In this document: positions 31,170 through 59,015 of the stretch, in pieces
Numbering within the stretch: position 1 is the stretch's first letter
Layout: every line of letters begins with the position of its first letter
Assembly: GCA_025093985.1 (NCBI GenBank)
Contig: JACAAK010000005.1
Span: 2,480,001 to 2,544,000, forward strand
Source of the DNA: Calvatia gigantea
Taxonomy: Eukaryota; Basidiomycota; Agaricomycetes; Agaricales; Lycoperdaceae
Direction of reading: 5' to 3'
DNA: 64,000 nucleotides
Position numbers and translations under genes: made by a program
The notes under the pieces: generated by a model
The model's input: only the letters and a program-made list of their open reading frames with translations
What the model was told of the DNA's origin: nothing
The model's database searches: none

Positions 31170-31307
31170 ATCTTCTCCAGGCACATAACTCTGTTTACTG
31201 CTCTCAAACAAATTCAAATAAAATCATATGATGAGAGTAGATTGTGTATAAAGATGAAAGCTTACTTCTCCAGGCCAAAGTAACCCAATAACTTATCTTC
31301 TGTTGAC

Positions 31308-32324
31308 ATGAAACCTCTCTCTTCTTCTCAGATTGATCATATCCTCTTTCTCCTTGACAAAGGACATACTGCTACCCAAATTGCTTCCACTACTGGTTAT
31401 TCCCTCAGTACTATCTCTAGAGTTTGCTCTAAACATAGGCCAATAATTTCCAAATCCACTGGTGGCCATCCAAGCAAGCTTTCCCCCTCTGATACCAAAT
31501 ATGCCATTCGACTTCTCACCTCTTGCAAGGCCGATAATGCCTCTCAGGTCACAAAGGCCCTCCAAAATGTTACCAACCAACCTGTTTCATCCAAAACAAT
31601 TCGAAGGACACTCAAAAGGGCAGGGATGAAGGCTGTAGTGAAGAGAAAATGGCCTTTACTCACTAGGGTTCACAAGCAGAAGAGGCTGGTGTTTGCAAAA
31701 ACATATGCAAACTGGACTGTGGAGGACTGGAAGCAGGTAGTTTGGACAGATGAGACTAAAATCAATTGGATGGGGTCAGATGGAAGGCATTGGGTGTGGA
31801 AAACAGCAGGAGAGGGGCTTAGTGACAGGCTGGTGAATGGAACTGTCAAGTTTGGAGGAGGTTCTTGCATGATATGGGGGTGCATGCTATGGCAGGGGCC
31901 TGGCCATATACACCACATTGAAGGTACCATGGATGGTGACCTTTATGTTTGCATTTTGGATGACAAACTTTACCAAAGTCTCAAGAAATACAGGAAGAAG
32001 AAGTGGCAAGTCCTTTTCCAACAGGACAATGACCCCAAACACACAAGCAAAAAAGCAAAAAAGTGGCTTGAAAACAGTGGTTTAAAGGTTATGGAGTGGC
32101 CACCACAGTCCCCAGACCTTAATCCCATTGAACAGCTCTGAACTTATGTCAAAAACAGGCTAGAAGAGTATGAAAACTACCCTTCCAGCATAACTGAACT
32201 CAGAGAAAGGGTGGATATAGAATGGGGCAAAATTCCTGCATCAGTGTGTCAGAATTTGATAGAGAGTATGCCTAGGAGGGTTCAGGCTGTTTTACAGGCC
32301 AAAGGGGGCTATACAAAGTACTAG
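31308..32324 (+). pseudogene. Tc1/mariner DD34E transposase with one nonsense codon
   Basis: Cut-and-paste transposase of 338 codons, the normal length of the family, without introns. An N-terminal paired-like helix-turn-helix pair is visible (DHILFLLDKGHTATQIASTT, then SSKTIRRTLKRAGMKAVVKR). The catalytic triad is present: WTDETKINW (first Asp), FQQDNDPKHTS (second Asp) and PDLNPIE (Glu), with 34 residues between the last two, hence DD34E. The frame is open from 31308 except for TGA at 32139-32141, directly after NPIEQL, where the family has a conserved Trp; TGG to TGA is a single-base change. The frame then continues through a normal C-terminus (YVKNRLEEYE, KIPASVCQNLIESMPRR, AKGGYTKY) to TAG at 32322-32324. 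The loss removes about 60 residues after the catalytic Glu. Confidence 0.93.
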
Positions 32325-44553: not shown

Positions 44554-45550
44554 ATGTTTCCTCCAAGACGGCTCCCTATACCTATCCTGACATTTCGGGG
44601 TGCGAAGAGCGTCCAACGTCGTTCTAAAACAACGTCGATCAGCGTGCGCAACATCTTTCATGACAACGAGTTTCTACTAACGAGACTGCGCAACACAGGA
44701 GCTCCAAGCGGCGTTTCGCGACCCATCTTCACCGTACTATATACCCCCTGGGACACAAGGTCCAGAAGGAGCAGATTCGCCGTCGCACACGTATGGCTTT
44801 AATCAAGCAGCAATTAATCCTGTCGATAGACTTGGTAAGGCGCACCAAAAGTTAATTGAGGAGGGATTTGATCCTCAATCACTCTGGGAACAACAAATCG
44901 TTTGGGGAGATTATGATGCATTTCAGTGAGATTCCTCCGTTATTCCTCTGCCACCCCGTAACTGACACGTTCCAGACACGTTAACAACGTTCGTTATGGT
45001 ACGTATTTGTTACCTCAGGAGGAAGGCCCTAGCCTGATGGGCATCTCCTAATCTCCTATGAAAGTACGGTTCTTTGAGTCGGTAAGTTCACATTCTTCCA
45101 GCTGGTAGCCCCAGATGCCTAACGACGCCACTTCCAAAGGCCCGCATCAAATGGATGTGTTCCATAGGCCGCGAATTAGGAGGTCCTGAAAAGGCAGATG
45201 CCATGCTCAAAGGCAAAGGGGTGTCGCTCATCTTGAAGTCTATTGAAGTGAAGTTTCGACGGCCGGTGACTTACCCAGACACGGTATGGCCTTAGCTCAT
45301 CGTTCTTGGGGAGGAGCACTTATTACCTAGCCAACAGCTTGTAATTGGTCACAAGCCCCGGCCTCCCCCAGAGGGCAATCCAGATAATTCTGCGTTTGAG
45401 CTCATTGCGTCTGCTTATTCCGTTGCACAAGAGGCTTTCGTTGCACATTCTCGCGAGTCTTTGGTCTGGTATGATTACGATCGTCTTAAGAAGTGCGACC
45501 CAGGTGAACGAGCGAGAGGGGTGGTATTCGGAAGGTCTAAAGCAAGATAA
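44554..45550 (+). CDS. hotdog-fold thioesterase (4HBT-type), probably mitochondrial
   Basis: Acyl-CoA thioesterase-like protein of the single-hotdog 4HBT class. The ATG at 44554 opens a basic, acid-free leader (MFPPRRLPIPILTFRGAKSV) typical of mitochondrial import. The first intron carries a perfect TACTAAC branch site. The hotdog core starts WGDYDAFQHVNNVRYVRFFE, with the D..HVNN signature of the active site, then ARIKWMCSIGRELGG, VSLILKSIEVKFRRPVTYPD, LVIGHKP, and the closing strands FELIASAYSVAQEA, SRESLVWYDYDRLKK. TAA at 45548-45550. Five introns, no frame break. The substrate cannot be told from sequence. Confidence 0.85.
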
Positions 45551-47365: not shown

Positions 47366-50300
47366 ATGTCGCTTTTTCGTCCACCAGCTCCTCCAAAGGG
47401 TGTCGCGTTGGGTCAATGGATAGCTAAGCGGCTGACAGAATCACCAAGTACCACTTCACTCTTGGATTGCCTGTGTTCCACCCCCAGTCCAGCCATCATC
47501 CCCCCAGATCCCTCGCAGCGAGCTCTCACACACAGGGATTTACGCGAATTCATCTCGACCTTTGCCTTGCCCCATTCCCCGACGCATGCACCCGCCGACA
47601 GAAACGATCGCGTCCTCGTCGCTCTCCCTAACGGACCAGTCAATGCCCTCGCCTTGCTTTCGGTGGCGTCCTATCACACTTGTGCTCCTATCAATGCCTC
47701 ATGTACAGCGAGCGAGCTTCGTGATGATGCAAAGCGGTTGGGAACGAAGGTAATTCTGGCAACGAAGGACTCGATGGAACGCCTTGGATTGGAAGCCCTG
47801 CAAGAGGAGCTCGGATGTGAAGTCATCCTTGTTGAGCCCCGCCCGGACGGTCTGGCTGGATTATTTGACATGACCTGCTTGAATAGGCCTACCATTTCTC
47901 CAAGTCGACCCTCGCAACTTCAGGAGCTGGACGACCAGTCATTAATTCTCCAGACCTCTGGAACGAGCGGGAAAAAGAAGATTGTTCCATACACCCTTCG
48001 GACGCTGGTCGTAGGAGCATGGGCTGTCATCCACTCGTGGTCCTTACAAGAAAACGACGTCAATCGTAGGTCGCATTTACATTAGATGCTATTTTCATGC
48101 TTAAAGGCATTCAGTGAACATGATGCCTCTCTTCCACGTTGGAGGTTTTGTGCGAAGTTTATGCGCCCCAGTCCTTTCCGGGGGAAGCACTATCATGTGT
48201 GCTGGTTTTGATTCGGTTGCATTCTGGAGTGTGGCTGTCCGGTTCCGGGCTACATGGTAAGAAGTCGCGATCACTAAGGGGCTAGGCGGGAATTCTTAAC
48301 ATGATCAGGTATTACGGAGCACCGACCATTCATCATGCCATTCTATCATCTCGCCCCAACACTATCGACATCCCCAGAGACTTACATATTCGCATGATTT
48401 GCAATGCAGCGGGCGGCCTCTTGCCATCTCTGGCGCTGGAAATGAAACAAACTTTCGGGAATGCGGTCATCCTTCCGTCGTACGGCATGACAGAGTACGT
48501 CAAGGATCCTAATTTGCGTGTATCCCCGCCGTGGACTTAGAGCGCTGAATTCTTTCCAGATGCATGCCAATAGCTTCTCCGCCGCAAGACTACAAACTTG
48601 AGCGTCCTGGCTGTTCGGGTGTTGCTTGTGGTCCAGAAGTCACTATACGTGATCCATCTAGCTTGGAGCGCGAGGTGCCAAGGGGAAAAACAGGTGTCAT
48701 CGCCATCCGGGGATTCCCTATGTTTTCCGGCTATGAAGTTTCTTCGGATAGGAACGCACCATTAGACAAGTCTTGCTTTTCAGCGGATGGGTGGTTTGAT
48801 ACTGGAGACATGGGCTACATGGATATGGACGGGTACGTTCTATTTTGGGACACCGATCGAATCTAAACAATAACCACTATTAGTTACTTGTACATAACGG
48901 GAAGATCGAAGGAGATCATCAACAAGGGTGGAGAAGTGATATCCCCGTTTGAGATCGAAGAGGCTATTGCAACTGCTGCCAAGGATCGCGTCAAGGTTCG
49001 TCGATTGGAGCGTACTTATCGAAAGTCACTGATTATATGGATAGAACGCCATGGCCTTTACGGTCGAACATGACATCTTACAAGAGGCAATCGGCGTCGT
49101 GATCGTTTCCGCACCTGGCAAACCGAGAATTGGGCTCCACCAGCTCCATGATGGCCTTCGGTGAGTTGGTCGTTCTCAAACGCAAGTAGTAACTAAATTC
49201 TATCTTTAGTAACTACCTCCACCCATCGAAATGGCCCTCGGTCATCGTTTACATGAATGACCTTCCAAAGAATAGGTAAGACCTTATTCCCGCGTTCCGT
49301 GCAAACCGTTGATCTGTTTTGGTTAGCACCGGCAAGGCGCTTCGCACCAATTTAGCGAAGCGGCTCGGTCTCCCTCAATTCCATGATGGTCTTCCCGCGA
49401 ACCAGCGCCATTTTGAGGCCAGCGCACCATCACCTCGCGCGTCACTTTCTGAGTCCATTCCATGCTCGCGCGTTACGGTCTCCCCCCAGAAACTGGAGCC
49501 GCTTCTGAAACATATGGACGAGGATCAAAGACTTTGCTTTAAACATCTGCGCCGATGGGTCCACGGAATTGTACCTCAGCGTCGACCCCAAGTGTCTCTT
49601 GAACTCCAAAGCGCTCAAGGATATAATCGCACAAGAAGTCGACGGATACTTAGTTCCTGAGACTATTTACTTACTCCATGGTTCCTTATCCCACCTCAAA
49701 TCCGGCGAAGCGAACTTCGAAGTGGCTCGGAGGGACTCCGCTCAATTCACCTCCTCTTCTATGTCGAAAACAGAATTACGCATACGCAATTTCGTAGCCG
49801 AAATGCTGTCGGTGGATCATGCCAACATCACCGCTCAGTCCGACTTCTTCCTCCTCGGCGGGACCTCTCTGCTTCTCGGGAAACTGGCCTATCAAATCCG
49901 GAAAGAAACCGGCGCACAAATAAACGTTTCAGCCCTCTTTAATAACTGCACGATCGCAGGCATGGCGATTCTGGTGGATGCCGAGACGCTAAAGGGTTCG
50001 TTCATATCGGTGGATGAGAAAGATGACCGGAATCGTCACTCCGCAGCAACGTCTATGACCGCATTTGGCTTTGAATATGACTACGACCAAGAGTACCAAG
50101 TCTTTGAGAAGTCGAAGGCGCGCGGCCAAAACCATCCTATCTGTTTGATCGTTCAAGCGATTCCAGTCTTATTCTTTTACCCATTGAAAGCTGCATTGAC
50201 TTGTGAGCAAGAATGCTTCCTCTGGGCTCCAGTCCTGACGGTATTCCTTTTAGGGTCACTCCTTCTCTTCACTCTTTCCTACATCGCACAGTTTTTCAAA

Positions 50301-53075
50301 GGTGGTTTTTGGGTTAAGCTAGCCGCGCTCTTGGCGGCTATCGTGGCTTCAAGAGCTGTTGTCAGAATTATTGCCCCGATTACTGCTATCGTGTTCAAAT
50401 GGGCCGTGGTTGGGCGATATAGACAGGGAACGTATCGCATGTAAGTTCCTTGATCCGAGTTACCGATCACCACTAACGGCTATTAGGTGGTCGACATATT
50501 ACCTTCGTTGTTGGATCGTGGACCAAAGTATTAGGTTTGCCTTTCTGGCCTATAGGCATCCGACTTTCGTCTGAAGATTCTTAGGTCCTCTGGAAAAGGT
50601 CTCTTCGCCCTCCACCCGTCCTTGACAATTCTCTATTACCGATTGCTGGGAGCCAAAATCGGCAAGAACGTATTCATCGATCCTAAAGCGAAGCTAGGAG
50701 AGTATGATCTTCTGGAACTTCATGATGGGTGCCGCATAGACAAGTCGCATGTTCGAGGTTTCTGCGTCGAACGAGATGGGTACTTCCGCCTGGACAACAT
50801 CGTTATTGGAAGGTGTGCTGTGATCAACACCTATACATGCATATCCCCCGGTGCCGCTATCCCGGACAGTGCTGTCTATGGACCCCATGCCTCGTCCCAC
50901 GATCCTCCCTCGTCCAAATCCTATGCCGCATATAACCGTACTCTGTGCCCGGGACCCAATTGGGCCCTTCAAACATTTGTGGGCTGGCCCCTTGTTTTTC
51001 TTGTCGTAGTGATATCCTGTATGTATCTGCCTAGCCCGGAGGGATTTAAAAACTCACCTATGATTAGATATCCCCTGGGTATTCTGCCTCTGGCTCATGA
51101 TTAAGGAAGTACAGATCACCACTGCTGGTTTAAACGCTCTGGAAGCAATCATTTGGTGGTTTGCAGATCCCAGACGCGTTGCTTACCACGCACTGTCCCG
51201 TGTTGTTCGGGCGACTTTCACTCCTGTCCTTCGATTAATTCTAGGGATCGCTTTGAAACGTCTCATGGGATTCAACCCGGAATGTTCGGCGGAGCACTAT
51301 ACTCAAGCTATGTTACTCCGGCGCTTTATTAACACGAGTATCCTTTCCCAAGATGCACTACACAGAGCGCTTTCCGTCCTCGGCATACACTATGAGATCG
51401 TTTCCGTGAGTGTTAGCCTTGTTTTCACCGTCGAACAAACGACTAAACCGCCAGGACCACAGATTGTGTATCGTGCTATGGGAGCAAAAATAGGAAAGCG
51501 CATATACTGGCCCGGCTCTGGGATCTACTGCGCAGATCCTGAGCTCCTCGAGATTGGGGACGATGTAGTGTTCGGATCGCGCTCAGAGATCTTCACGAAT
51601 GATAGGTTGGGTGCCAAAAAAGTGGCCATTGGTAGTGGAGGTAAATGTCAACTTCGCGAAAATTCATTCGTACGTCTAATATTGTTGTAGCAATGATTGC
51701 AGATCGTGTCGTTTTACTACCCGGGTCCCATGTTGGTCGACGGACAGTGATGGGTTCTGGTGCACTTGGAAAACGCGATACTGTCTACGAGGACGGTTCG
51801 ACTTGGATGGGATGTGGTGAGTTGCCTCTTTCCGCCACAAAATGACCATTTCTGATACTTGCCCCAAGACAACGGTGACGCAATCTGCTTCGGGAGACCC
51901 GACAAGGAGCTTGACGAGAAAGAAGTCACTAGTAGTCCGTTTGGCCGGGCATTTTATGAAGGGCAGGCAAGTTATTGGGTGTACCCATATTGGCTCATCC
52001 TTGCCAGCAACATAGTCATTGTTGCCGTTTCCGCCGCATACTGGTCAATCAGCCCTGTGGCTGCCGCCCAGTTCCTTCGACACGTCCATGTGCAACTTGG
52101 AAATACTGAACTCTTCAAGCCGACTTGGTACCGATTGGCGGTCCTCTACATCCTAATCGTGTTTTGCTTCATCATTGTACTTAACCTGCAGGCCACCATC
52201 GCCCTCCTTTGGGTTATCGTGACTAAGTGGATCGTCATCGGTGAACGTCGCGAGGGCCGGTACGAATGGGACAAGAGCGACTACTGCCAGCGGTGGCAAT
52301 TGCACCTCTCATTGTCTCGCCTCTTGTACAAAGGTTACGGCACGGGCGGTATTCTCGGCCACCTTAACGGTTCAGTATACGTCGTCTGGTTTTACCGTGC
52401 TCTCGGCGCAAAGATTGGAAAGAATTGTGCACTGTTCGCCGGAGGAATCAGCGGACTGATGACGGAACCTGACCTTGTTGAGGTAGGTCAAGCGACTGTT
52501 GCCATAACAATCCTTACTCATTGCTACTGTTCAGATTGGGGATGATGTTAGCTTGGACGATTGTTCAGTCGTATCACATATCAATTCTAGGGGAGTATTC
52601 GCATTGAACAAACTCAAAATTGGGAATGCGTGCGCGCTGCGCTCTGGCTCACGACTGCTTTCTGGAGCGTCCATGGAAGACAAGAGTATGCTTTGCGAAC
52701 ACACCCTCCTCGTCTCTGGTGACATTGCCGAATCCGGTTATGTCTACTCTGGTTGGCCTGCACAACGGCAAAAACAGGATGGCATAGACGATCGAGCTGA
52801 GTCACCTGGTGCCCAGCTTATTTGCCCCATTTGTCGTCAATTCCCACATCAAGGTGTGGCGACCGCCTGCGGACACCTCTTCTGTGAGAGGTAAGTTGCC
52901 CATACACCAAATTCTATCCACATGTTAAATTTGGCCACGTAATTATAGGTGTATCGACCGGGTTCTCACTAGTCAGCGTCGTTGTCCTGTTTGCCGCGTT
53001 CCCGCCTCTCGTGCCCAATTGCGCCACGTTCGTCCCTCATTCGCAATCAGTGATCGCAGCCATGAGAGCCACTAG
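47366..53075 (+). CDS. NRPS-like poly(amino acid) synthetase with C-terminal RING finger
   Basis: Large membrane enzyme with the order of epsilon-poly-lysine synthetase (Pls): A - carrier - three (membrane pair + left-handed beta-helix) repeats. Sixteen exons, 4930 coding bases (about 1642 residues once one extra base at 49527-49529 is skipped). The adenylation domain (residues about 1-650) shows LQTSGTSGKKKIVPYT, MMPLFHVGG, YYGAPTIHHAIL, NAAGGLLPS, PSYGMTECMP, GWFDTGDMGY, YITGRSKEIINKGGEVISP and STGKALR. The carrier domain has DFFLLGGTSLLLG with the Ser for phosphopantetheine. Three repeats start YRLLGAKIGKN, YRAMGAKIGKR and YRALGAKIGKN, each with beta-helix sequence and preceded by hydrophobic pairs. 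The last exons run into a C3HC4 RING (CPIC, CGHLFC, ERC, CPVC) and end at TAG 53073-53075. Such enzymes form amide-linked homopolymers; the monomer here is unknown. No gene cluster is evident. Confidence 0.93.
52823..52994 (+). other. RING-finger (C3HC4) domain at the C-terminus of the NRPS-like protein
   Basis: Ligand pattern read from the sequence: CPIC, eleven residues, then CGH, LFC, ERC across an intron, and CPVC, matching C-x2-C-x11-C-x-H-x2-C-x2-C-x(n)-C-x2-C. It is in the same frame and the same exon (52535-52890) as the last beta-helix repeat, separated by a polar linker (QKQDGIDDRAESPGAQL). RING fingers usually recruit E2 enzymes in ubiquitin ligases; whether this one does is not shown here. 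Confidence 0.85.
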
Positions 53076-53696: not shown

Positions 53697-55731
53697 TTAT
53701 TCAATGATTTCCAATTCTCGTAGACGAGCTTTGGCAAACTCGTCTTTGTAGGTATCCCAGATACTGGAAACTCAGCGTCAGTAAAAACCGATTGATTAGA
53801 GATGAAACGGTGATGATGTACCGAGTAAGCTCAGCGATATACTTTTCTTGCACTGCTCTTACTTCTTCTGTGGTTGGCTTGTCGTGTTGCTTAACTGAGA
53901 TAGGCCTTCCAACTAAGGAAGAAGTTGAGTTCTCAGGAGAGAGATCGTGAAAACGTAATGTGTCAAATACTCACTAACAACGACGATACGGCGTCGATAA
54001 GGCATGAGACCGAGATTATCTGTCCAAGAAAGTTGAGGAGCGTCACCCTTTGCGTCACCAGGAGGGGGAGCGTACAATTTAGGAGTCCGCGCCCATGGAA
54101 CAACGGTAAAGTAAAACCAAAGATAGACTGGAAGTGTTTCTGGAGCGTATGTATCGTTGTGCCTTTCTCGTTTGGCATCTGTTGATAGATCTGGAAAGAA
54201 TAAAGTTCAGCAAATACTCGCGTTCGGGGTCCTTGCGGCCATACATCATTCTCGCCAAAAGAAAACACGGGTACTAAATCTGCTCTGTTGGAACGCATTT
54301 CAGTATACCGTCAAGAGACGATGAATTCGATTGGTATCCACCCATGTTGGATCGCAACCTTGATGAAGCCCAGCCTGTTCATGCACAATTCACTTAGAAA
54401 TCCACAGGTGGTGGAATTAAAAGGCAGCCACTCACCGCTTCCGCAGGGTCAAATCCACAGTCCCTGGACGCGCACTCAGACTTTCTGCCGCACCTCCAAC
54501 AACGATCGTAATCGCGGATCCGGGCCCTGATTTCAATATATTGGAACAAGACGCCTTGCTGACGCTGTAGATGCCCAGTGCCATAAGGATGTCGCGATAG
54601 AATGGCACTTTGAAGTTGCTTGCGAGCGTTAAGAGGTGTGGTGTTATTCCGGGGAATGCCTCTGAGAATCCTGTGGCTGTAGCAGGGGGTTTAATATTAG
54701 GGGTAGTTGTGACTTTGAGCGTAGGGCGCACCTTCTGTCGCAAAGGTCACCAGGGCTCCCCTTTAGTTGTTCCAAGTTAGCTAGTACTCATAAGATGGGA
54801 GAGAGACAGGTGAACAACGTACATGCCAATGATTCCTGGGACACCACATATATTAGAATATTCTTTCGTTAGAAGCATCCAAAAGGGACACACCGTGGGG
54901 ATGATACCCAAACACATACGGCCGATCTGCAGGCAAATCCACCTCCTACGACACGCCCATTTAACATCACACAAGACCCACCAGCCGACAAGTACGAACC
55001 TTCATGAATCTAGCCGAAGCGGCGCCACCATAATATCATATAAGTTACACCAAGCAAGAAAAGGAGAAATCAAAGGGGGGACTCACGAAACAGGATAATA
55101 ATCCGCAAAGTACCTCCAATATACACTCTTCCTCGCCCATTGATTAATCCTGTTCCCCCTCTCCGGTGCTTTGTCGATATAATTTATCCAGATCCAATAC
55201 ATTGCGAGGAAGGGCCATAATGGAGGGAAGGAGCTAATAAACCAGACACCCATATTAGACCGTTACGATTCTTGAGTTGACAGGCAAGGGGCGTGATAGG
55301 AGAAATGCCATGGGGGTGTCCCGGCCGAGTTGAAAGACACACACCAAAGGTAAAAGAATAGGCAACACATAATGCCGAGCAACGACGACCAGATTGCAAC
55401 TGCCAAAGTCTGCAACCTCCTCTTCCTCGGGATCTTCGCCGGCACAAACCTGTCTCAAACGGGGTCAGTAAAAACTTCTCGTAAGAATCACCAACTCCAC
55501 GCCATGTGATACAGCCCCAGAAACGCACTCGATACCAGTATTCAGGGACGGCGCCTGTGCAAGCTTCGACAATCGGGCCTTCAAAGAACTTGCAGACAGT
55601 TCTCGCGTGCCCTTTGTGAGCATGTTCGCGTTCTCCTTGGTCTTAGTTCCCGACCGGAGTGAAGTCTGTGTCATTGAGGATGAGAGGAGAAGTGAAGAAG
55701 ATAAGGAGGTAAGTAGTGGATCATTTGACAT
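53697..55731 (-). CDS. DGA1: diacylglycerol O-acyltransferase 2 (DGAT2)
   Basis: Acyl-CoA:diacylglycerol acyltransferase of the DGAT2 family, making triacylglycerol at the ER and lipid droplets. The ATG at 55729-55731 starts a Ser/Leu-rich leader, then a basic KIPRKRRLQ and two membrane segments (LAVAIWSSLLGIMCCLFFYL; FPPLWPFLAMYWIWI). Landmarks: YWRYFADYYPV, the family's FGYHPHG, EAFPGITPHLLTLASNF, GIYSVSKASC, GPGSAITIVVGGAAESL, ADLVPVFSFGENDIYQQMPN, LFHGRGLLN, GLMPYRRRIVVVIGRPI and the terminal IWDTYKDEFAKARLREL. The stop is TAA at 53697-53699. All exons join in frame across small introns. On the coding strand AATAAA overlaps the stop codon. Next gene on the same strand is CDC48. Confidence 0.96.

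Positions 55732-55941: not shown

Positions 55942-59015
<3,074 letters not shown>

What the first reader, a model, noticed from the sequence alone, without database searches (positions are those of the whole stretch)
47366..53075. Poly-lysine-synthetase-like NRPS fused to a RING finger
The protein has the A - carrier - three (membrane/beta-helix) plan of epsilon-poly-lysine synthetase, followed in the same reading frame and exon by a C3HC4 RING finger. Known enzymes of this plan (bacterial Pls; Epichloe VibA) end after the third beta-helix repeat as far as I know. A fusion to a ubiquitin-ligase type module would link polymer synthesis to ubiquitin signalling, for example self-degradation or control of the enzyme, or tagging of a polymer-bound target. 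The sixteen-exon structure argues for long residence in the fungus.
Basis: partly seen in the sequence, partly recalled or inferred. Interest (0 to 1): 0.85.

Follow-up and report, generated by a model that had tools for sequence, protein, structure and literature searches.

The report
Mushroom acyl-polymerase-like enzyme with RING
A mushroom gene joins a membrane enzyme that resembles bacterial polymer makers to a ubiquitin-ligase-type RING finger, and the same fusion is found in many other mushrooms, so it is probably real and old; what the enzyme makes and what the RING does have not been tested.

Summary
The fusion is real. A + strand gene at 47366-53075 encodes an adenylation (A) domain, a carrier, a three-repeat membrane/beta-helix domain and a C3HC4 RING (Pfam E 6e-9). 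Of 140 relatives held, 64 have a full RING, 17 a partial or altered one and 59 none by pattern. Eight of the 17 models stop where the window's RING-splitting intron begins.

Three corrections. (1) The A domain is not lysine-type: its closest solved relatives are oxalyl-CoA synthetases, and it lacks the Asp that binds alpha-amino groups, kept in 6 of 6 bacterial Pls/PosA proteins aligned. (2) The C-terminal domain is a true but distant Pls/PosA homologue (23% identity; 173 bits, cut-off 423) with one histidine (H1470) shared by all 23 rows aligned. (3) This copy has a frame break near 49517-49530 that relatives lack: assembly error or broken allele.

Best reading: a membrane acyl-thioester transferase or polymerase carrying its own RING E3, most likely to ubiquitinate itself. 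E3 activity, target and product are inferred. Eight searches of the held papers found no description of the fusion.

The parts
47366..53075 (+). Whole gene, sixteen exons: 47366-48065, 48115-48256, 48309-48494, 48560-48832, 48884-48995, 49045-49160, 49210-49275, 49327-50440 (frame break inside), 50487-50534, 50585-51018, 51068-51405, 51463-51640, 51691-51816, 51869-52482, 52535-52890, 52949-53075
   Evidence: Dynamic-programming gene model, edited by hand and checked against relatives
47519..49366 (+). Adenylation (AMP-binding) domain, aa 52-545, acyl-CoA-synthetase type; FHVGG where bacterial Pls/PosA have FD[MLF][SA]
   Evidence: Pfam PF00501 E 8e-41; best PDB match oxalyl-CoA synthetase 6qjz E 2.3e-54; alignment with six bacterial proteins
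49517..49530 (+). Frame break between the A domain and the carrier
   Evidence: Three-frame translations; relatives P0001, P0003, P0004, P0005 continuous here, P0002 lacks part of the stretch
49779..49967 (+). Carrier (PP-binding) domain, aa 656-718; attachment Ser685 at 49866-49868
   Evidence: Pfam PF00550 E 4.5e-10; Ser685 identical in all 23 rows
50130..52774 (+). Pls/PosA-type C-terminal membrane domain, aa 773-1535: three hydrophobic blocks (about 773-868, 1015-1105, 1283-1377), each followed by a repeat of hexapeptide/beta-helix type
   Evidence: TIGR02353 173 bits in three stretches, below the 423 cut-off; hydropathy; tblastn E 1e-19 to a Sphingomonas Pls/PosA protein
52577..52579 (+). 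His1470 in the third repeat, the only His identical in the 17 fungal and 6 bacterial rows aligned; candidate catalytic base
   Evidence: 121 of 121 fungal rows
52766..52822 (+). Linker between the third repeat and the RING; variable among relatives by eye
   Evidence: Tails listed; coordinates
52823..52994 (+). C3HC4 RING finger (Cys1552 to Cys1589), split by phase-2 intron 52891-52948 between zinc ligands 5 and 6
   Evidence: Pfam zf-C3HC4_2 E 6e-9; split, coordinates
52995..53072 (+). C-terminal tail after the RING; contains HVRPSF here, where the family has mostly [RK][IV]..SF
   Evidence: Column counts over 58 RINGs

Best explanation
This is a conserved membrane enzyme of mushrooms. Its A domain activates a carboxylic acid that is not an alpha-amino acid and loads it on the carrier. 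The Pls/PosA-type membrane domain then passes the acyl group from the carrier to an acceptor, perhaps repeatedly, with His1470 of the third repeat as the likely base. The RING at the end, taken to lie on the cytosolic side like the A domain and carrier, most likely recruits an E2~ubiquitin and ubiquitinates the enzyme itself or its dimer partner, tying its lifetime or sorting to cell state. Shown here: the architecture, its conservation, the A-domain type, the invariant His. Inferred: acyl transfer, topology, E3 activity, the enzyme as its own target.
For: RING over five Pfam cut-offs. A profile of 16 of the 58 full RINGs matches known E3 RINGs: BRE1 E 1.7e-13, RNF4 single domains 5.7e-10 and 1e-9. 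In 58 full RINGs: M, I, L, V or F two after ligand 1 in 54, Pro after ligand 7 in 54, tail Phe1605 in 52; the ligands themselves were required by the search pattern, so they are no independent test. The linker before the RING varies while the RING and tail do not, by eye. 64 full RINGs among 140 relatives. Eight models stop at one and the same point inside the RING, which suggests a shared intron and one old fusion. A-domain type. C-terminal homology and His1470.
Against: No transcript, protein or activity data. No trace of a RING in 45 of 121 rows, so the catalytic core does not need it; 24 of these may be cut-off models. With equal costs the tree does not favour one gain: 12 changes if the root lacked the RING, 13 if it had it. 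The Arg right after the last zinc ligand, which helps many RINGs (recalled), is present here but in only 4 of 58. RNF4's tail Tyr aligns with residue 1602, Arg here. Hydropathy does not settle the number of membrane segments: the first block (773-868) has three to four peaks, so the side of the RING is assumed by analogy with Pls. This copy has a frame break. Nothing identifies the target.
Confidence: 0.45

Rival explanations
1. The RING is an active E3 whose main targets are other proteins near the membrane. The synthetase serves as anchor and sensor.
For: Membrane-anchored RINGs often act on other proteins (recalled). Same RING conservation evidence.
Against: Pfam finds no further domain beside the RING. 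Nothing in the window points to a partner.
Confidence: 0.2
2. The RING and its tail mainly hold two enzyme chains together; ubiquitin transfer is secondary or absent.
For: RNF4 is a dimeric RING E3 (PMC6349121) and BRE1 is recalled as one; both are among the best matches. In the RING-less polypore clade 15 of 19 rows have a charged tail of 75-92 residues in the same place, which might do the same job. The Arg after ligand 8 is absent in 54 of 58.
Against: Positions that face the E2 in other RINGs are conserved. The coiled-coil look of the polypore tail was judged by eye, not tested.
Confidence: 0.15
3. This particular copy is a broken gene: the frame break at about 49517-49530 separates the A domain from everything downstream.
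For: No good intron joins the frames; the one the gene model chose (49441-49522) has weak sites and removes sequence that P0001, P0003, P0004 and P0005 encode. No second copy found in the genome.
Against: The rest of the gene, about 4.8 kb of coding sequence, is open with usable splice sites. A small assembly error would look the same.
Confidence: 0.35
4. The RING belongs to a separate downstream gene that was joined by reading the frame through.
For: 59 of 140 annotated relatives show no RING and 17 a partial or altered one.
Against: The first half of the RING is in the same exon and frame as the third repeat. 64 of 140 records carry a full RING at the same place.
Confidence: 0.02

Closest known systems
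Pls/PosA homopolymer synthetases (TIGR02353; Streptomyces epsilon-Pls, Acinetobacter PosA, Epichloe Epls)
   Same: A - carrier - membrane domain with three repeats; 23% identity over most of the C-terminal domain; H1470 and E1450 identical in six bacterial rows.
   Different: A domain of acyl-CoA-synthetase type without the alpha-amino Asp; TIGR02353 score below cut-off; C-terminal RING. The six bacterial proteins end 2 to 31 residues after the third repeat and show no RING pattern. Epls itself was not fetched; that it has an A, T, C1-C3 plan is from PMC7179176.
Oxalyl-CoA synthetase / Pcs60 acyl-activating enzymes
   Same: Closest solved relatives of the A domain (6qjz, 8aff, 5ie0).
   Different: HVHG is HVGG and RSCSAS is CNAAGG near the acyl site, so oxalate is not predicted (residue roles recalled). 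The best NCBIfam model is another acyl-CoA ligase, FadD7 family, 204 bits, below its cut-off of 650.
BRE1- and RNF4-type RING E3 ligases
   Same: Among the best RING profile matches, including the segment after the last zinc ligand.
   Different: Here the RING is the tail of a biosynthetic membrane enzyme; RNF4's tail Tyr aligns with Arg1602 in this copy.

Membership tests
Pls/PosA family (TIGR02353) | C-terminal domain over the curated cut-off of 423.1 bits | tested here: not met
   173.4 bits for this protein; P0001 183.3, P0087 174.5, a bona fide member (L010) 772.6 bits
Pls/PosA family (TIGR02353) | Amino-acid-type adenylation domain with the alpha-amino-binding Asp | tested here: not met
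   FD[MLF][SA] in 6 of 6 bacterial proteins, FHVGG here. 133 of 140 relatives match FH[VI]GG; in the other 7 the place was not found. TIGR01733 is not among the 25 best of 111 families listed for this protein but scores 418.8 bits for L010
Pls/PosA family (TIGR02353) | A - carrier - membrane domain with three repeats | tested here: met
   Pfam, three TIGR02353 stretches, BLASTP along the carrier and C-terminal domain
Pls/PosA family (TIGR02353) | Six membrane segments in three pairs | tested here: inconclusive
   Three hydrophobic blocks by hydropathy; the first has three to four peaks
Pls/PosA family (TIGR02353) | Makes a cationic homopolymer | not testable with these tools
   Needs biochemistry
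RING-type E3 ligase | C3HC4 zinc ligands with RING spacing | tested here: met
   Five Pfam RING models over cut-off; PDB profile matches
RING-type E3 ligase | E2-contact positions kept | tested here: inconclusive
   Hydrophobic residue two after ligand 1 in 54 of 58, Pro after ligand 7 in 54 of 58; Arg after ligand 8 in 4 of 58, this copy included. Roles of these positions recalled
RING-type E3 ligase | E2-dependent ubiquitin transfer | not testable with these tools
   Needs biochemistry
Oxalyl-CoA synthetase / Pcs60 | Acyl-site residues of the solved enzymes | tested here: inconclusive
   Closest solved sequences, but motifs near the acyl site differ; residue roles recalled, not read in a paper

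The most novel reading that the evidence does not exclude
The two halves work in one chemical pathway: the membrane transferase and the RING cooperate so that the carrier-bound acyl chain or the membrane-bound product is joined to ubiquitin, that is, ubiquitination of a non-protein natural product by the enzyme that makes it.
Probability: 0.04. Interest if true: 0.95.

Novelty: new variant of a known kind. Interest (0 to 1): 0.6.

Why it matters
It is a widespread mushroom enzyme class that looks like a lysine-polymer maker but probably uses another kind of acid, so its product is an open and testable question. It also places a ubiquitin-ligase-type module on a biosynthetic membrane enzyme, which, if active, would couple product formation directly to protein turnover. 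RING-less relatives are natural controls. Gene models often lose the second RING exon (in the window, reading past the splice site meets a stop at once), which may be why the fusion has drawn no notice.

Tried and rejected
Considered and rejected: that the RING is a separate gene; that the A domain is lysine- or ornithine-type; that the 82-nt intron 49441-49522 is real (weak donor, GAG acceptor, removes sequence that four close relatives encode). I thought that the odd tails of P0004 and P0005 were the second RING exon read in another frame: 3 of 300 shuffles scored as high for P0004 and 90 of 300 for P0005, so I do not claim it. I looked for the RING's donor in the same genome: the best other match (L014, 36% identity, E 1e-6) looks PEX12-like from memory; no donor found. 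Of the 27 open frames of 150 aa or more outside the gene, 23 were checked with Pfam, with 7 shorter ones; no clear gene cluster. Rfam (gathering threshold) and tRNA scans of the window were empty. The tree is an unrooted FastTree; gain against loss is not settled. The third protein search and the genome-contig scan were not used, so relatives outside the best-scoring mushrooms were not surveyed.
Full report
Gene model. A dynamic-programming model, edited by hand and compared with relatives, gives sixteen exons joined by fifteen GT-AG introns from 47366 to 53075. Exon 49327-50440 contains a frame break: one frame carries ...LEPLLKHMDE and, from about 49517-49530 on, another carries IKDFALNICADGSTELYLSVDPKC. 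Relatives P0001, P0003, P0004 and P0005 encode continuous protein here; P0002 lacks part of the stretch. I listed every GT/GC-AG pair joining the frames; none is convincing. The protein used in the searches (1615 residues) was read through with one of them, 49441-49522. Assembly error or broken allele cannot be told apart here.

Domains. Pfam finds AMP-binding at residues 52-401 (E 8e-41), carrier at 656-718 (4.5e-10), hexapeptide at 1205-1233 (1e-9) and a RING at 1552-1589 (best E 6e-9; five RING models over their cut-off). Hydropathy shows three hydrophobic blocks at about 773-868, 1015-1105 and 1283-1377. Pls has six segments in three pairs (PMC10522769); here the first block shows three to four peaks, so the exact number is open. 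NCBIfam TIGR02353, the Pls/PosA C-terminal domain, matches in three stretches with 173 bits, below its cut-off of 423.

The A domain. The best solved matches are oxalyl-CoA synthetases (6qjz E 2.3e-54, then 8aff and 5ie0); the best NCBIfam model is a FadD7-type acyl-CoA ligase, 204 bits, below its cut-off. [quoted passage not shown] I aligned 6 bacterial proteins out of 59 plasmid records with a match, five annotated as Pls/PosA and one unannotated Streptomyces frame: the motif is FD, then M, L or F, then S or A in 6 of 6; here it is FHVGG. Of 140 fungal relatives 133 read FH[VI]GG; in the other 7 the place was not found. In a BLASTP of the Sphingomonas protein with P0001 the A domains do not align significantly (E 0.057). 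The substrate is therefore probably a carboxylic acid without an alpha-amino group. Oxalate itself is not predicted, because motifs near the acyl site differ (residue roles recalled).

The C-terminal domain. tblastn against plasmids finds 59 records, best E 1e-19 at 23% identity over 87% of the query. BLASTP of P0001 with the Sphingomonas protein gives E 2e-31 over the carrier and C-terminal domain. In an alignment of 17 fungal and 6 bacterial proteins the only invariant histidine is H1470 in the third repeat; E1450 is invariant too. H1470 is present in 121 of 121 fungal rows. I propose it as the catalytic base. According to the PosA paper (2023) no experimental structure of this domain existed.

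The RING. Fifty-eight proteins (57 relatives and the window) match a full RING pattern. Two residues after ligand 1 stands M, I, L, V or F in 54 of 58; Pro follows ligand 7 in 54 of 58; Arg follows ligand 8 in 4 of 58, this copy among them; in the tail residue 1600 is Arg or Lys in 50, 1601 Ile or Val in 54, 1604 Ser in 49 and 1605 Phe in 52 of 58. A profile of 16 of these RINGs finds 189 PDB sequences at E up to 0.001, among the best 60 an RNF4 tandem (4.4e-22; its two RINGs singly 5.7e-10 and 1e-9), a RING2-BMI1 chimera, BRE1 (1.7e-13), TRIM21 and COP1. In dimeric RING E3s such as cIAP1, BIRC7, RNF4 and MDM2-MDMX a tail Phe or Tyr packs on the donor ubiquitin (PMC6349121, passages). Whether the tail here does so is inference: RNF4's Tyr aligns with residue 1602, which is Tyr in 31 and His in 13 of 58 but Arg in this copy.

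Conservation. The first search scored the 7988 candidates sharing most words, 1015 passed, and the best 120 were listed; a second, on the C-end of P0053, passed 542, listed 120 and brought the proteins held to 140. By pattern 64 have a full RING, 17 a partial or altered one and 59 none. Eight of the 17 end exactly two residues after zinc ligand 5 (P0002, P0003, P0028, P0075, P0078, P0084, P0103, P0129) and P0052 one residue after. In the window the exon ends at this point (52890, phase 2), and reading on into the intron completes one codon and meets a stop (frame 52508-52894 ending in CGHLFCER). P0066 has about 17 extra residues at the same place, as a retained intron would give. So the intron inside the RING looks shared and the fusion old; intron positions in the relatives are inferred from proteins, not seen. 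The nearest relative, Macrolepiota fuliginosa (Agaricales), has the full RING at 78% overall identity. P0004 and P0005 keep the first zinc pair and then diverge, by gene model or in truth.

Evolution. In a FastTree of 121 rows the window groups with P0001-P0005 (support 100). RINGs occur in many Agaricales (orders mostly recalled), in three Athelia rows (Atheliales) and in Taiwanofungus (Polyporales), which groups with Plicaturopsis (Amylocorticiales) rather than with the other polypores. One clade of 19 rows, mostly Polyporales and Gloeophyllales (recalled), has no RING in 19 of 19; 15 of them end in a tail of 75-92 residues. Counting any RING trace as present (four rows, P0004, P0005, P0036 and P0037, set by hand), 76 rows have it, 45 do not, and at least 12 changes are needed. 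Of the 45, 24 stop within 36 residues of the last GWP motif and may be cut-off models. Rooted on the 19-row clade, a RING-less root costs 12 and a RING-bearing root 13 at equal costs, so the tree alone does not show a single gain.

Setting. The window lies in a 45.95-Mb genome in 77 contigs. Searches by TIGR02353, by the A domain and by the third repeat with half the RING found no second copy; four other A-domain matches are weak (25-37% identity). Just downstream on the other strand is a DGAT2-type acyltransferase, further on a CDC48-type ATPase; upstream there is a weak thioesterase-like match. No clear gene cluster.

Literature. Searches of the held library listed no paper that I recognised as describing this fusion. 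That is no proof: only open-licence papers are held, titles and starts of abstracts were seen for most, and the protein databases already list RING domains for many of these proteins. PMC7179176: part 1 of 5 of the text read. Passages seen: PMC10522769, PMC6349121, PMC10989895, PMC2823734, PMC9893682, PMC7466969, PMC8070225.

Verdict. The fusion is real as sequence, conserved in many mushrooms and not described in the papers searched. It is a new variant of the Pls plan with a different kind of A domain. That the RING works as an E3 is likely but untested.

Noticed in passing
window 49517-49530: Frame break between the A domain and the carrier that four close relatives lack.
   Followed up: partly
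window 53963-54743, - strand: Diacylglycerol acyltransferase (DGAT2, PF03982) gene just downstream, convergent.
   Followed up: no
window 56249-57350, - strand: CDC48/p97-type AAA ATPase gene; CDC48 handles ubiquitinated proteins (recalled), but the neighbourhood may be chance.
   Followed up: no
window 45086-45292, + strand: Weak thioesterase-like match (4HBT_2, E 5e-4, below cut-off) upstream of the gene.
   Followed up: no
window 31284-32138, + strand: Transposase-like frame with HTH_Tnp_Tc3_2 and DDE_3 domains.
   Followed up: no
P0087, P0091, P0105 and other rows of the RING-less 19-row clade, C-terminus: A charged, heptad-like tail of 75-92 residues stands where others have the RING (15 of 19 rows).
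   Followed up: partly
P0053 (Taiwanofungus): RING-bearing polypore protein that groups with Plicaturopsis, not with other polypores: transfer, old paralogue or mislabelled record.
   Followed up: no
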